From Deltaproteobacteria bacterium (lineage in GTDB: Bacteria > Myxococcota_A > UBA9160 > UBA6930), in contig JAJDAR010000023.1 in NCBI GenBank assembly GCA_029261775.1, forward strand, positions 1-45,468: DNA of 45,468 bases. The letters run 5' to 3'. Below the pieces are notes generated by a model. That model made no database searches, was not told where the DNA came from, and saw nothing but the letters and a program-made list of their open reading frames with translations. Positions 35,631 to 43,662 of this stretch are shown here, piece by piece. The stretch's first letter is position 1; each line of letters begins with the position of its first letter. Made by a program: the position numbers and the translations under genes.

Positions 35631-37043
35631 GTGCGACTCCGCCTGCTGGCGCTGGTGGGCTGCTGGCTGGCCCTGCCGGGCTCTGCGGGGGCCGCCGTCC
35701 AGGCGGGCGTCGCCGCAGCGGTCCGCGGCGCCGTGACCCTCGACCGCGGCGCGGTCGTCGGCCAGCAGGTGTCGAGCGGCGATCCGATCCGCCTGGGAGA
35801 CGTCCTCCAGACGGGCGCCGACGGCGGCATGCAGGTGCTGCTGCTCGACGAGACCGTCTTCACGCTCGGCGCGAGCAGTCGCCTGGTGATCGACGAGTTC
35901 GTCTATGCCCCCGACGGGCGGGAGGGTCGGCTCGGCGCACGGCTGGTGAAGGGCGCCTTCCGCTTCGTCACGGGACGGGTCGCGGACGATCACCCCGAGA
36001 ACGTCGAGCTGAAGCTTCCCAACGGAACGATCGGCATCCGCGGCACGGTCGCGGAGGCCGTGGTCGAGGGGGACCACAGCCGCGTCCTGCTCGTCGGCCC
36101 CGGCCCCACCAACGACGCCTCGGAGCGGGTCGGCGCCCTGCTCGTCCGTGCCGGGGGAATCACGCGCGAGCTGCTCACCCCGGGCTTCGAGGTCGTGATC
36201 GGCGCCGATCACATCCCCTCGCTGCCCGCGCGGATCGAGTCGCCGCTTCCCTTTTCCTCCCCGTCGCCTGAGGCGGAGCGACCCGCCCAGCCTCCGACAG
36301 CGCCCACCCGGCCGGCCCAGGCCGTGCTGCCGGCGGCCTCCCCAGACACCGACCCGGCGGGATCGACGCGCGCTGCGGGAATCCCGCGCGCCGTGGCGCG
36401 ACTCGCGGCCGTGCGGCGCGCCGTCGAGGCGGAGACCTCCACCACCGAATCCGAGCAGTCGGGATCGGCCCCACGCAAGCTGGGCACGGCGAATCTGGTC
36501 CCGGGCCAGAAGGGCTTCGACCTGGGCCTGCTGCTGGAGAAGGGACAGATCGATCCCTCCATCCTGCTGCCCCCCGCCGGTCTGCCCGACGCCAACACGC
36601 CGAGGTCCCACCTGGCGGCCGTCGCGAGCTTCTTCCCGGGCCGCTTCGAGTGGCGTTTCGACGACAAGCCTTTCAACGGCGGAAACGTCGCGGGGCGCTT
36701 CGACCTGAACGTGGTGATCGACTTCGGCAACGAGGTCGTGGCGATGGGCTTCGGGGATCTGGTCTCGGCCGCCTTCCTGACCAACGGCTCCGGAAAGCCG
36801 GTGTTCGACGTGCGTTCCTTTGCGGGCGGAGGCTCGAACGACGCGGTCTTCTTCATGGGCGGCACCTACGACGAGCCCGGGATCGCCTGCGGAACGGGCT
36901 GCGACGTCGACCTCGTGACCCGGTTCCTGAATCGCAACGGCAACGTCGCGAGCCACGCCGACTTCGTCCTCCAGGTCCAGGCGCCGGGCAAGACCGGCGT
37001 CTTCCAAAGCAGTGAAACCCCCGTCCTCCAGGTGATTCCGTGA
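35631..37043 (+). CDS. FecR-domain secreted protein, first of a tandem pair
   Basis: A 470-aa exported protein: signal peptide (1-20), a FecR domain (about 22-170; VAAAVRGAVTLDRGAVVG, DVLQTGADGGMQVLLLDETVFTLG, SRLVIDEFVY, NGTIGIRGTVAEAVV), a Pro/Ala-rich linker (about 195-270), and a C-terminal domain (about 320-470) with GRFDLNVVIDFGN and CGTGCDVDLVTRFLNRN. There is no membrane helix or anti-sigma region and no sigma factor gene nearby, so it is not an ordinary FecR signalling protein; it should be outside the inner membrane. The start GTG lies 1 nt after the Slam-like stop. Its paralog follows at 37040. Confidence 0.88.
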   Translation: MRLRLLALVGCWLALPGSAGAAVQAGVAAAVRGAVTLDRGAVVGQQVSSGDPIRLGDVLQTGADGGMQVLLLDETVFTLGASSRLVIDEFVYAPDGREGRLGARLVKGAFRFVTGRVADDHPENVELKLPNGTIGIRGTVAEAVVEGDHSRVLLVGPGPTNDASERVGALLVRAGGITRELLTPGFEVVIGADHIPSLPARIESPLPFSSPSPEAERPAQPPTAPTRPAQAVLPAASPDTDPAGSTRAAGIPRAVARLAAVRRAVEAETSTTESEQSGSAPRKLGTANLVPGQKGFDLGLLLEKGQIDPSILLPPAGLPDANTPRSHLAAVASFFPGRFEWRFDDKPFNGGNVAGRFDLNVVIDFGNEVVAMGFGDLVSAAFLTNGSGKPVFDVRSFAGGGSNDAVFFMGGTYDEPGIACGTGCDVDLVTRFLNRNGNVASHADFVLQVQAPGKTGVFQSSETPVLQVIP

Positions 37044-38374
37044 CGCCTCGACTCCTCCGCCTCGTCCTCCTCCTCGCCGTGCTCGGACCGGGCGCCGGCT
37101 ACGCAGGCGTTCCCGCCGGCGTGGCCGCCGCCGTCCGCGGGTCGGTCTCCCTGGACCGGGCTCCCGAGATCGGGCGCCGCGTGGCGAGCGGCGATTCGAT
37201 CCACCTCGGGGACATCCTGCAGACGGGCCCGAAGGGGGGCATGCAGCTCCTGCTGCTCGACGAGACGGTCTTCACCCTGGGACCGGACAGCCGCCTGGTG
37301 ATCGACGAGTTCGTCTACGACCCGGGCCAGCACGGTGGCAAGATGCAGGTCCGACTGGCGAAGGGCGTGTTCCGCTTCGTCACCGGCAAGATCGCCCGGG
37401 ACGAGCCCGAGAACGTGGACCTCGAGCTGCCGGTCGGCAGCATCGGCATTCGCGGCACGATCGGCGGTGCACGGGTCGGAGCGCAGGAGAGCGTCGTCGC
37501 GCTGCTCGGACCCGGACCGCTGAACGACGCGGACGAGCGCATCGGCGGGCTCGTGGTGCGGACGCCGGGCGGGGAGCGCGAGATCGTGACCCCCGGATGG
37601 GCGGTCACGATCTCGGGCGCGGGGCCTCCCTCGGTCCCCTTCCACGCGGGACCGGGCGGCTTCCTTCCACCCGCACCGCCGCAAGCACCCGGCCCTCCGC
37701 CGGGCTCCCGCCCTGCGCCTGCGGGATCGGATGGATCGGGCCTCGATCCCGAAGAGTCGGCAGGAGCGGTTCGCGCCGGCGGCCTGGTGGCCGGCCGCAC
37801 GCCCCGCCAGGTGGCCCGCCAGGGGGCCGCGCTCGAGGGACTCGACCCGTCGGGGCTCCGCACGCCGGACGAGCAGAACCTCCAGACCTTCGTGCCCGAG
37901 TTTGCGGGCCAGGGCCTGAACTTCCCGGACGGGATCACCCGCGTCGTCGAGCTGGTCCAGTACTCGAACCAGTTCCAGGGCTCGCTGCACTGGGAGATCA
38001 AGGGCGCCCTGCTGAACACGCCCCCGACCGGCATCTTCGATGCCGAGGTCATCGTCGACTTCGCCAAGCGCGACGTCGGCTTCAAGTTCGAGAAATTCAA
38101 CTCCCTGACCTTCGTGACCAGCGGAATGGGCGCGCCCCTGGCCGTGGCCAGGCCCTTTGCCTCCGGATCGAACGGCAACGCGGACTTCGTCCTCACGGGC
38201 CAATACATCGAGCCCTCGGGATGCGTCCCCTGCAACGTCACGTTGAACTCGCGCTTCTCCAACCGGAACAACCAGCCGGCGCGCGAGGGAGACTTCTTCA
38301 TCGTGATCTCGAATGGCGGAACGGTGGCGACCTCCGGTCCCTTCAAGGGGCCGCCGACTCTCATCATGCCATGA
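37040..38374 (+). CDS. FecR-domain secreted protein, second of a tandem pair
   Basis: A 444-aa paralog of the preceding gene, clearly from a tandem duplication: long stretches of the FecR domain are near-identical at DNA level (the SRLVIDEFVY region). Signal peptide 1-22, FecR domain about 24-170 (GDILQTGPKGGMQLLLLDETVFTLG, GSIGIRGTIGGA), Pro-rich linker (about 200-240), and a C-terminal domain (about 300-444) with GIFDAEVIVDFAK and CVPCNVTLNSRFSNRN. The C-terminal domain is more diverged than the FecR domain, as for a part in contact with different ligands. GTG start overlapping the previous stop (GTGA). Confidence 0.88.
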   Translation: MTPRLLRLVLLLAVLGPGAGYAGVPAGVAAAVRGSVSLDRAPEIGRRVASGDSIHLGDILQTGPKGGMQLLLLDETVFTLGPDSRLVIDEFVYDPGQHGGKMQVRLAKGVFRFVTGKIARDEPENVDLELPVGSIGIRGTIGGARVGAQESVVALLGPGPLNDADERIGGLVVRTPGGEREIVTPGWAVTISGAGPPSVPFHAGPGGFLPPAPPQAPGPPPGSRPAPAGSDGSGLDPEESAGAVRAGGLVAGRTPRQVARQGAALEGLDPSGLRTPDEQNLQTFVPEFAGQGLNFPDGITRVVELVQYSNQFQGSLHWEIKGALLNTPPTGIFDAEVIVDFAKRDVGFKFEKFNSLTFVTSGMGAPLAVARPFASGSNGNADFVLTGQYIEPSGCVPCNVTLNSRFSNRNNQPAREGDFFIVISNGGTVATSGPFKGPPTLIMP

Positions 38375-41635: not shown

Positions 41636-42049
41636 ATGGTCAGGGCCTACAGGATCCTGTGTGGCGTGCTCGGCGTGGCCTTCGTGGTCTTCGGCCTGGG
41701 CGCCTTCGTCTCCTTCTTCGGCTTTCACGCACCGGGCAGCGCCGGCCTCGGCGAGCCGCTGCCCGTCGGACCCAACGGCGTGTACTTCGTGGCGTTCACC
41801 GGCAGCTGTCTGGTCGGATGGGGTGGCTGCCTGCTGGGAGCTGCGCGCCGACCCGAGGCCGCGCCCTGGATCGCCACGGCCACGGCCACCGGCCTGGTCC
41901 TGAACGCCGTGTACCGGATCTTCGTCTGGATTCTGGGCGACTATCACGCTCTCGGGAACCTGCCGCGCGTCGAGGCGGGGCTGTTCCTGCTGCTGGCCCT
42001 GGCCCTGCTCTGGCTCCGACCCCCTGCCAGCGCAGCGAAGGCGTCCTAG
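41636..42049 (+). CDS. Small four-helix membrane protein (DUF4345-like size), function unknown
   Basis: A 137-aa integral membrane protein with four helices (about 8-28, 48-70, 77-95 and 112-130), short loops and a basic N-terminus (MVRAYRIL). Layout and length recall small uncharacterised membrane proteins such as the DUF4345 group, but I cannot make a firm match. It lacks a Shine-Dalgarno and is preceded by the palindrome at 41614-41630. The selenoprotein gene begins 9 nt after its stop, so the pair may be co-expressed. Confidence 0.75.
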   Translation: MVRAYRILCGVLGVAFVVFGLGAFVSFFGFHAPGSAGLGEPLPVGPNGVYFVAFTGSCLVGWGGCLLGAARRPEAAPWIATATATGLVLNAVYRIFVWILGDYHALGNLPRVEAGLFLLLALALLWLRPPASAAKAS

Positions 42050-42058: not shown

Positions 42059-42658
42059 ATGCTTCGCTGGGTCGCCACCGCCTTCATCGGCGCACTGCTC
42101 GTGCTGACTCTGGTGCTGCCCGGCACGAGCCTCGGCCGGCGCGGTACCGAGAGCGCCACGCGCATGGAGACGGCGGGAGAGTCGAGCTTCGTGGGTCGGC
42201 CCTTCCCGCCGCTGGCCTTGCGCACGCCGGAGGGCGAAGCCATCCCGTGGGAGACCCTGCAGGGCCACCGCGTGCTCATCACCCTGGAACGGAGCGTGGA
42301 CTGGTGACCCTACACCAAGGCGCGGCTCGTGGAGCTGCGGCGGACCTTCGAGGAGGTGCCCGACCTGAAGCTGGTCTACGTCCTCCCGGACAACCAGTGG
42401 AACGAGAAGTCGACCCTCTTCGTCGAGAGCAACCGCATGCGCAATCGCATCCTGTTCGCGGTGGATCCGGGAAGCACAGCCGTGGATCTGCTGGGCCTCC
42501 GGCGCGAGAACCCGGAGCCGATCGAGGAGGGCGTGCCGCATCCCGCTACCTTCCTGATCGACCGCGACGGCATCGTGCGCTTTGCGGACGTGCGCGAGGA
42601 CTTCCACATCTGGATCGACTCGGGCTTCGTGCGGGAGGCGCTCGCCGCCATCCCCTGA
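42059..42658 (+). CDS. Redoxin (peroxiredoxin-like) selenoprotein with in-frame TGA as selenocysteine
   Basis: One 199-aa thioredoxin-fold protein read through a TGA at 42305-42307 (codon 83). Signal-anchor helix 5-22, then SSFVGRPFPPLALRTPEG, the redoxin opening, and the active-site segment ERSVDW-Sec-PYTKARLVELRRTF. Cys-containing relatives have DWCPYCKAQLVEL here, so the TGA falls exactly on the peroxidatic/first redox Cys, while the second Cys is Thr (Sec-x-x-Thr). Family sequence resumes in the same frame (LVYVLPDNQWNEKSTLF, PHPATFLIDRDGIVRFADVREDF). A SECIS-like stem-loop follows at 42321-42339. Predicted role: thiol peroxidase or disulfide reductase on the periplasmic side. Calling two separate short genes would be a mis-annotation. 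Confidence 0.85.
42321..42339 (+). promoter_or_regulatory. Bacterial SECIS-like stem-loop
   Basis: CGCGGCTC (42321-42328), loop GTG (42329-42331), GAGCTGCG (42332-42339): eight pairs with one G-U wobble. The loop begins 22 nt after the TGA and has G as its first base. This agrees with the known bacterial SECIS rules: short apical loop with a G in the first two positions, about 16-37 nt from the UGA, stable upper stem. The element is inside the coding frame, as usual in bacteria. Confidence 0.7.
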
Positions 42659-43662
42659 CTGCGATCTGCGCCGTCGCCCTCGCGGCGGCCTGTCTGGCGG
42701 CGCCGGCCCTCTCGGAGGAGAGCCGGCGCTTCTCGTTCCGGTACGCGGCCGAGATCGGGCCGATCGAGAAGGGCGCCGGTCCCGTCCACGTCTTCGTGCC
42801 CCTGCCGCGGGTCAGCGAGGAGCAGACCGTCGTCGAGCTGGGTGTGCGGGCCTCGATCCCGGGGGTCGTCGAGCAGGAGACGACCTACGGCAACCGCTTC
42901 TGGCACGGGCAGCTGGCCGCGTCGACGGGTGAGCCCGTCCGCGTCCAGATCGACGCCACGATCGAGCGCCGCGCCCACCGGGTCGCGCCGGCGGCGGGGC
43001 CCTGGCCCGACGGGGCCGAGCGTGAGACCCACCGTCGTTTCCTCGAGGCCAACCAGCACGTGGCAGTCGGCCACGAGGTGCTCGATCCGATCCTGGCCGA
43101 GATCCGGGCGGCGCGTGCCAGCGACGGACCGAGCGACACCGCGCGCGCGATCTACGACTGGGTCGTCGACCACGTCGAGTACAAGAAGGTCGGCACCGGG
43201 TGGGGCAACGGTGACACCTTCTGGGCCTGCAGCGAACGCTACGGCAACTGCACCGACTTCCACGCGCTGTTCACGTCGCTTGCGCGTACCGAGGGCATCC
43301 CGGCGCGCTTCGAGATCGGCTTCCCCGTCCCGGAGGATCGCGAGCACGGTGACATCGGCGGCTATCACTGCTGGGTGCAGTTCTACCTGCCCGGCAGCGG
43401 CTGGATCCCGGTCGATGCATCCGAGGCCTTCAAGCACCCCGAGCGGCGCGAGCAGCTGTACGGCGGCCAGCCCGCCGATCGCATCCACCTGACGACCGGC
43501 CGCGACCTGCAGCTCGGGCCCGATCACCGGGACGAGCCGCTCAACTACTTCGTCTACCCCTACGTCGAGGTCGGCGGCCGGGCGTGGGAGGGCCCGATCG
43601 AGAAGGCCTTCCGCTTTGCGGCGAGCCAGGACCCGCTCACGACGCCCGTCGGTGGCGAGTAG
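42655..43662 (+). CDS. Transglutaminase-like Cys protease-fold protein, exported, CTG start
   Basis: A 335-aa protein with a signal peptide (about 1-19, AICAVALAAACLAAPALS), a beta-rich domain (about 25-110) and a transglutaminase-like core (about 160-260). The catalytic triad is complete: C199 in YGNCTDFH, H238 in YHCWVQF, D254 in VDASEAF. The start is unusual: the only codon that keeps the signal peptide is CTG at 42655, in a 4-nt CTGA overlap with the selenoprotein stop; no ATG, GTG or TTG is available in frame nearby. Coupled translation from the selenoprotein is therefore likely. Substrate may be a peptide or an exported protein. Confidence 0.88.
   Translation: MTAICAVALAAACLAAPALSEESRRFSFRYAAEIGPIEKGAGPVHVFVPLPRVSEEQTVVELGVRASIPGVVEQETTYGNRFWHGQLAASTGEPVRVQIDATIERRAHRVAPAAGPWPDGAERETHRRFLEANQHVAVGHEVLDPILAEIRAARASDGPSDTARAIYDWVVDHVEYKKVGTGWGNGDTFWACSERYGNCTDFHALFTSLARTEGIPARFEIGFPVPEDREHGDIGGYHCWVQFYLPGSGWIPVDASEAFKHPERREQLYGGQPADRIHLTTGRDLQLGPDHRDEPLNYFVYPYVEVGGRAWEGPIEKAFRFAASQDPLTTPVGGE

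What the first reader, a model, noticed from the sequence alone, without database searches (positions are those of the whole stretch)
42059..42658. Hidden selenoprotein: redoxin with TGA at the active-site Cys and a SECIS-like hairpin
Seen: two open frames (42059-42307 and 42329-42658) lie in the same frame and are split by one TGA. The codon falls exactly where peroxiredoxin-like proteins have the redox Cys (ERSVDW-TGA-PYTKARLVEL). A stem-loop (42321-42339) with a G-first 3-nt loop starts 22 nt after the TGA. Known: Prx-like and other thioredoxin-fold selenoproteins exist in deltaproteobacteria and marine metagenomes, and bacterial SECIS elements follow this geometry. Inference: TGA encodes selenocysteine. 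The second Cys being Thr makes a Sec-x-x-Thr site, which is less common. Automated annotation would report two truncated fragments.
Basis: partly seen in the sequence, partly recalled or inferred. Interest (0 to 1): 0.9.

Follow-up and report, generated by a model that had tools for sequence, protein, structure and literature searches.

The report
Membrane redoxin made with selenocysteine
What looks like a broken gene is one intact gene whose internal stop codon is most likely read as the rare amino acid selenocysteine, giving a membrane-anchored redox enzyme of a type not listed in the catalogues consulted, found together with a small membrane protein of unknown function.

Summary
Confirmed and extended. 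Window 42059-42658 (+) is one AhpC/TSA-type redoxin gene with an in-frame TGA at codon 83. Of 30 family members aligned (own included), 28 have TGA there and 2 have Cys codons; a third Cys member is known. A hairpin at 42321-42339 fits the published bacterial SECIS model. All 8 pairs hold in 27 of 28 TGA members; in 2000 synonymous shuffles at most 4 of 28 reached even 7 contiguous pairs. In the three Cys members it is largely lost in two and slightly damaged in one. The genome holds tRNA-Sec, selA and selD; selB was not found in this fragmented draft, but all four congeners have it.

New here: the motif is U-P-x-T, with Sec at the first position of a CxxC-type site, not the TxxU site of canonical peroxiredoxins; two review tables list no PF00578 selenoprotein with UxxT. 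Nearly all members lack Cys and the protein starts with a hydrophobic helix. An upstream four-helix protein of no known family is found in exactly the same 34 genomes. In this genome 15 of 20 PF00578 matches carry an active-site TGA. A new variant of a known kind; chemistry and partner role untested.

The parts
42059..42658 (+). Selenoprotein gene: AhpC/TSA-type redoxin with N-terminal hydrophobic helix, 199 aa with Sec at residue 83; its own stop is also TGA (42656-42658)
42305..42307 (+). Sec codon TGA (motif W-U-P-Y-T)
   Evidence: 28 of 30 family members TGA, 2 Cys codons
42321..42339 (+). bacterial SECIS-type hairpin: stem 42321-42328 with 42332-42339, loop GTG 42329-42331
42062..42124 (+). 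codons 2-22: N-terminal hydrophobic helix, probable membrane anchor
   Evidence: helix 2-22 in the predicted structure; hydrophobic in relatives
41636..42049 (+). partner gene: 137-aa protein of four long, mostly hydrophobic helices (four-TM inferred), no known family found, 9 nt upstream of the redoxin

Best explanation
This is a genuine selenoprotein gene. UGA at codon 83 is decoded as selenocysteine by the standard bacterial route (tRNA-Sec made with SelA/SelD, delivered by SelB bound to the hairpin just downstream). The product is a redoxin domain of peroxiredoxin/TlpA type, probably tethered to the inner membrane by an N-terminal helix, with Sec as its only redox residue (U-P-x-T). I infer that it works as a one-Sec thiol peroxidase or reductase: the selenol attacks a peroxide or an oxidised thiol, and the resulting Se-OH or Se-S is reset by an external thiol or through the membrane partner encoded 9 nt upstream. 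Shown here by computation: conserved Sec codon, SECIS-type hairpin, constraint on the downstream half, near absence of other Cys, the gene pair. Inferred: catalysis, direction of electron flow, topology, role of the partner. The confidence given is for the Sec reading; for peroxidase-type chemistry I would put about 0.5.
For: At codon 83, 28 of 30 family members (own included) have TGA, 2 have TGT/TGC; of the 34 genomes with a strong match (E <= 1.5e-45) among 191, 31 have one TGA inside the match and 3 none; L126, the third Cys form, reads TGC. ERS-x-DW-[UC]-P-x-TK is unchanged in all 22 rows of A1. dN/dS after the TGA is 0.16-0.27 in five pairs, dS above 1 in two. SECIS: 223 of 224 pair cells kept against mean 154.5, maximum 176 in 2000 synonymous shuffles; stem codons almost frozen, loop codon free; three members carry a C-G to G-C double change at the top pair. 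Hairpin largely lost in Cys forms L040 and L126. tRNA-Sec 67.7 bits, anticodon TCA by ARAGORN, selA 525 bits, selD 276 bits. Predicted structure (mean pLDDT 80.6) aligns with peroxiredoxin-fold chains at Z 15.6-17.4 in the 50 entries shown. 27 of 28 Sec forms have no Cys; L044 has one, in the anchor.
Against: selB was not found in this genome; I read that as an assembly gap (578 contigs, 93% complete), since all four congeners have it above cut-off. Seven of the eight hairpin pairs never vary, so covariation rests on one pair, and the count of pairs with a double change (1) is reached by 188 of 500 shuffles. Cys form L030 lost only the top pair and still folds at -10.6 kcal/mol, and Sec form L044 lost the same pair, so those two say little. 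The hairpin overlaps a strongly conserved peptide. No expression, selenium or activity data exist. The peroxiredoxin PxxxTxxC motif is absent.
Confidence: 0.93

Rival explanations
1. Pseudogene or sequencing error: TGA is a real stop or an error for TGC/TGT, leaving two fragments.
For: Two separate ORFs in a draft genome. Three family members carry Cys codons.
Against: The same TGA in 28 of 30 family members from different genomes; purifying selection downstream; frozen hairpin codons.
Confidence: 0.01
2. UGA is recoded, but to another residue (reassigned code, or plain readthrough by a near-cognate tRNA).
For: selB is not seen in this assembly.
Against: TGA is the terminator of 19 of the 30 family genes, this one included; tRNA-Sec(TCA), selA and selD are present; the only exchange seen is to Cys; a SECIS-type hairpin is selected.
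Confidence: 0.02
3. The protein is Sec-containing but not a peroxidase: it is a ResA/TlpA-like thiol-disulfide reductase or isomerase serving a particular envelope protein, with the upstream membrane protein as electron donor or scaffold. (This rivals the chemistry, not the Sec reading.)
For: The five profile alignments shown (ResA and four 'thioredoxin family' chains) place Sec on their first active-site Cys; TlpA also matched, alignment not shown. Many of 22 members weakly match NCBIfam TlpA (20) and ResA (19) models, 5 MauD. Membrane partner in the same genomes.
Against: The second Cys of CxxC is Thr in all 30; structural matches are led by peroxiredoxins; the partner shows no conserved Cys.
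Confidence: 0.4

Closest known systems
Prx-like thiol:disulfide oxidoreductase selenoproteins (PF00578, UxxC/UxxU; 'Prx-like 1' of the GOS survey)
   Same: Same Pfam domain; Sec at the first position of the active-site motif; UxxC paralogues in the same genome.
   Different: Second position is Thr, not Cys/Sec; hydrophobic N-terminal helix; no Cys; fixed partner gene.
Sec peroxiredoxin (PF00578, TxxU)
   Same: Peroxiredoxin fold; single active Sec; paralogues L160 and L163 here are of this type.
   Different: Sec is three alignment columns earlier (UxxT, not TxxU); no PxxxT before it.
Glutathione peroxidase-like selenoproteins (PF00255, UxxT)
   Same: Same Sec-x-x-Thr pattern (motif as listed in PMC13188914).
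   Different: Different Pfam family; PF00255 did not appear among Pfam matches up to E 1.
ResA/TlpA/CcmG thiol-disulfide oxidoreductases
   Same: Redoxin domain; Sec aligns with the first Cys of ResA; N-terminal anchor (recalled for these families).
   Different: No CxxC; Sec with Thr.
Mycobacterium tuberculosis AhpE (1-Cys peroxiredoxin)
   Same: Fold Z 16.0, 2.6 A over 147 residues; one active residue.
   Different: Soluble, Cys, PxxxTxxC motif (recalled).

Membership tests
Bacterial selenoproteins | In-frame UGA at a site held by Cys in homologues | tested here: met
   28 TGA, 2 Cys codons in 30; a third Cys form
Bacterial selenoproteins | bSECIS: loop 3-9 nt, stem 4-16 bp, G in first two loop bases, 16-37 nt from UGA to loop, MFE <= -7.5 | tested here: met
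   8 bp, GTG loop, 21 nt, -11.8 kcal/mol; criteria from PMC13188914 section 5; 15.1% of ordinary codons also pass
Bacterial selenoproteins | selA, selC and selD in the genome | tested here: met
   a second tRNA-Sec match just over cut-off (48.3 bits, L002) is tRNA-Ser by ARAGORN
Bacterial selenoproteins | selB in the genome | tested here: inconclusive
   not found in G000; above cut-off in 4 of 4 congeners and 81 of 117 genomes
Bacterial selenoproteins | Sec in the mature protein | not testable with these tools
   needs mass spectrometry or 75Se labelling
PF00578 AhpC/TSA | Pfam gathering score | tested here: met
   44.8 bits against 26, Sec read as Cys
Canonical peroxiredoxins | PxxxT(S)xxC/U motif at the active residue | tested here: not met
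   ERS[VIL]DWU in 30 of 30: no T/S at -3; Sec three columns before the TxxU Sec of paralogues
Prx-like UxxC/UxxU selenoproteins | Cys or Sec at +3 | tested here: not met
   Thr in 30 of 30
Known NCBIfam selenoprotein subfamilies | match above a curated cut-off | tested here: inconclusive
   member 1 has one match, 12.5 bits against 359; the table gives E-values but no scores for the other 21

The most novel reading that the evidence does not exclude
The Sec redoxin and the orphan four-helix membrane protein form a dedicated two-component membrane redox enzyme, confined to this bacterial class, in which a Cys-free, one-Sec active site is recharged directly through the membrane protein (for example from the quinone pool, or in lipid hydroperoxide chemistry) rather than by thioredoxin or a second Cys.
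Probability: 0.3. Interest if true: 0.72.

Novelty: new variant of a known kind. Interest (0 to 1): 0.55.

Why it matters
The reviews consulted split PF00578 selenoproteins by motif and list no UxxT form, so by their rule this is an unlisted subfamily. It comes with a co-occurring partner gene that gives a handle on function. The tree needs three separate Sec/Cys changes; if these are Sec-to-Cys losses, as I read them, they add to cases that the 2026 review calls rare and mainly limited to FdhA and SelD. It also points to uncultured Myxococcota-related genomes rich in Sec redoxins: three quarters of the PF00578 matches in this genome and 0 to half in five relatives carry a TGA. Standard gene calling would cut such genes in two.

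Tried and rejected
Rejected: pseudogene/error, reassigned code, chance hairpin (see rivals). Taking the missing selB as a refutation: dropped. The partner as a DoxX/MauE/DsbD-like protein: none of these is among the 16 Pfam families listed for its 17 members at E up to 10 (the tool's filters drop most weak matches), Foldseek has nothing at E <= 0.001 (best TMEM35A/NACHO, E 1.0), VIA best is Z 10.1 to tetraspanin CD53, inside the range the tool warns about for helical bundles; no family is assigned and none excluded. Other TGA-split genes in the window: a crude filter named 4 places; besides this one (42305) the other three (12181, 13261, 29231) look like ordinary gene ends by eye and were not followed. 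Plasmid collection: two distant matches. The first script misread minus-strand loci; its rows were dropped and redone. In one search a partial second match in G054 (C304, 3.6e-20) and all weaker rows were left out of the 34. A taxonomy look-up gave nothing. Papers: listings; PMC13188914 abstract, sections 5, 7 (parts 1-2 of 3) and 10, plus passages; PMC9312934, PMC1088965 and PMC2398784 passages only. The statement that no PF00578 UxxT selenoprotein is listed rests on these; subscription papers and supplements were not read. 'UBA9160' (searched) was my guess at the lineage and comes from no call.

Full report
OBSERVATION. Window 42059-42658 (+) is a single reading frame with one internal TGA at 42305-42307. 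Read as Sec it gives 199 residues. A Pfam AhpC-TSA match (44.8 bits, cut-off 26, Sec read as Cys) runs over residues 45-175, across the TGA. GC3 is 0.90 before and 0.93 after it. In a search of 191 genomes, 74 had some match at E <= 0.001. I treat 34 genomes as strong (best match E <= 1.5e-45): in 31 of them the match has one TGA inside, in 3 none. The remaining rows are weaker redoxin relatives and one partial second copy in G054.

SELENOCYSTEINE. The tool returned loci for 30 of the 34 strong matches (own included). At codon 83 they read TGA in 28, TGT in L030 and TGC in L040. That L126 is the G056 match is inferred from its position. ERS-x-DW-[UC]-P-x-TK is invariant in the 22 rows of A1. 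dN/dS downstream of the TGA is 0.16-0.27 in five pairs (0.14-0.34 upstream), with dS above 1 in two, so the values are rough. TGA also ends 19 of the 30 genes, this one included, which speaks against a reassigned code.

SECIS. The hairpin is 8 bp with loop GTG, 21 nt after the TGA, -11.8 kcal/mol, and meets the published bSECIS criteria (criteria in PMC13188914 section 5). Alone this is weak: 1310 of 8667 codons of 18 presumed window genes meet the same criteria, and 3.4% of synonymous shuffles of this one sequence reach its energy. Across the 28 TGA members, 27 keep all 8 pairs; in 2000 synonymous shuffles of the set, a mean of 0.67 and at most 4 of 28 sequences reached 7 or more contiguous pairs. 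In the 30 members the stem codons hardly vary (GCG 26 of 26 Ala, CGG 29 of 30, CTC 25 of 30, GAG 26 of 26 Glu, CTG 30 of 30), while the loop Val codon does (GTG 20, GTC 8, GTT 2). Three members changed the top pair on both sides; L044 lost it; the other seven pairs never vary, so the number of pairs with a double change (1) is not unusual (188 of 500 shuffles), whereas pairing (99.6%) and covariation score exceed all 500 shuffles, and sliding the partner strand drops pairing to 46% or less. Cys forms: L040 keeps 5 of 8 pairs, L126 has no such hairpin, and L030 lost only the top pair and still folds at -10.6 kcal/mol. A tree of 36 rows needs three separate changes for the three Cys rows, and well-supported branches also force three. 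I read them as Sec-to-Cys losses; the direction is inference, least sure for L040, which hangs on an unresolved fork at the base of the family.

MACHINERY. G000 has tRNA-Sec (67.7 bits; ARAGORN calls anticodon TCA), selA (525 bits) and selD (276 bits). selB was not found with TIGR00475 (8 matches, none over cut-off) nor with a congener's SelB protein (3 matches); the three best are by my reading IF-2, EF-Tu and LepA. All four same-genus genomes have selB above cut-off, and 81 of 117 genomes do. I take this as a gap in a 578-contig draft.

WHAT THE PROTEIN IS. The model (18 rows, mean pLDDT 80.6) has a helix at 2-22; structural matches start at about residue 42. VIA-align places it with peroxiredoxin-fold chains (best Z 17.4, Bcp4; AhpE 16.0), Foldseek also with ResA. 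By sequence profile the best solved relatives are thioredoxin-family and ResA chains; in the five alignments shown, Sec falls on their first active-site Cys. Aligned with 15 paralogous matches of its own genome, its Sec falls in the UxxC column, three columns before the Sec of the two TxxU peroxiredoxins. So it is peroxiredoxin-like but not a canonical peroxiredoxin. 27 of 28 Sec forms contain no Cys; L044 has one, in the anchor. Hence no internal resolving Cys: an external thiol or the membrane partner must reset the Sec (inference). Gln113 and Trp185 are invariant in A1; a glutathione-peroxidase-like role for them is only a thought from recall. Which side of the membrane the domain faces was not tested.

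PARTNER. A 137-aa protein of four long, mostly hydrophobic helices (window 41636-42049; model mean pLDDT 89.5) ends 9 nt before the redoxin. It is found beside the redoxin in 29 of 29 other loci of the set, L044 only in part because the contig ends. The gap, measured to the start of the aligned redoxin in 29 of 30 loci (L044 dropped), is -4 to 34 nt in 28 and 110 nt in L048; 10 of 29 overlap by 1-4 nt. Its profile matches 35 of 182 genomes. The 34 strong ones (E <= 3.3e-42) are exactly the 34 with the strong redoxin; the 35th (G049) is weak at 4.1e-8, and G054, G057 and G089 have a second, partial match (set comparison). In 33 of 34 the two lie on one contig; in G056 they start at bases 10 and 44 of two contigs. 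No Pfam or NCBIfam family matches it convincingly, no solved fold at E <= 0.001, and it shows no conserved Cys. All strong cases of either gene lie among G000-G089 (own genome to same class); none of the same-phylum genomes searched beyond the class has a strong match.

THE GENOME. PF00578 gives 20 matches in G000 at E <= 0.001, 19 over cut-off, two of them in one frame; 15 have one in-frame TGA. Each TGA sits in an active-site context (TPGU, WUPPC, WUPYC, WUPFC, WUGC, YUGC, ULFC, UPPF and this UPYT); for L177-L179 this is by eye, they were not in the alignment. 13 of the 15 (this gene included) meet the bSECIS criteria, against 15.1% of ordinary codons. Relatives, my count: 12 of 24 (G036), 9 of 22 (G017), 5 of 15 (G005), 4 of 13 (G014), 0 of 8 (G007); where those TGAs lie was not checked.

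KNOWN OR NEW. Table 1 of PMC13188914 (119 families/subfamilies, split by domain and Sec motif) lists PF00578 with TxxU and UxxC/UxxU, and redoxin relatives with UGC, UxxS, UxxC (PF08534) or CxxU (Prx-SUH); UxxT appears for GPX-like, OsmC-like and distant Grx-like proteins, and in variants such as VPGUxxT, DUF3179 (UxxC/T) and SaoB (CUxxT). The 2005, 2008 and 2022 papers agree in the passages I saw. So Sec-x-x-Thr is known, Sec in PF00578 is known, and their combination with an N-terminal helix, no Cys and a fixed partner is not listed there. NCBIfam shows no evident model for it. Verdict: new variant of a known kind. The Sec claim is about as strong as sequence alone allows; the reaction and the partner's role are open.

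Noticed in passing
G000 loci L160-L179: 15 of 20 PF00578 matches in the genome carry a TGA in an active-site context: a Sec-rich redoxin complement; the full selenoproteome was not counted.
   Followed up: partly
L127-L159 (Gemmatimonadota, Acidobacteria and other MAGs): Distant relatives with a motif like FYRGxW-U-P-[YW]-C are mostly TGA too: 31 of 33 contain TGA, L128 has Cys and L147 does not cover the site.
   Followed up: no
G074:C211, G064:C1, G076:C60, G054:C161: selB lies beside another TGA-containing redoxin match in these four relatives.
   Followed up: no
window 42655-43662 (+): Transglutaminase-like gene whose frame overlaps the redoxin stop; its start codon is not settled (CTG at 42655 is possible); found as neighbour only in the same genus.
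   Followed up: partly
G021:C140 and G025:C29, C192: Two tRNA-Sec matches in one genome: on one contig in G021, on two contigs in G025.
   Followed up: no
G074: Two selB matches above cut-off in one genome (C428 and C211).
   Followed up: no
window 35631-37043 and 37040-38374 (+): Two adjacent FecR-domain genes in tandem.
   Followed up: no
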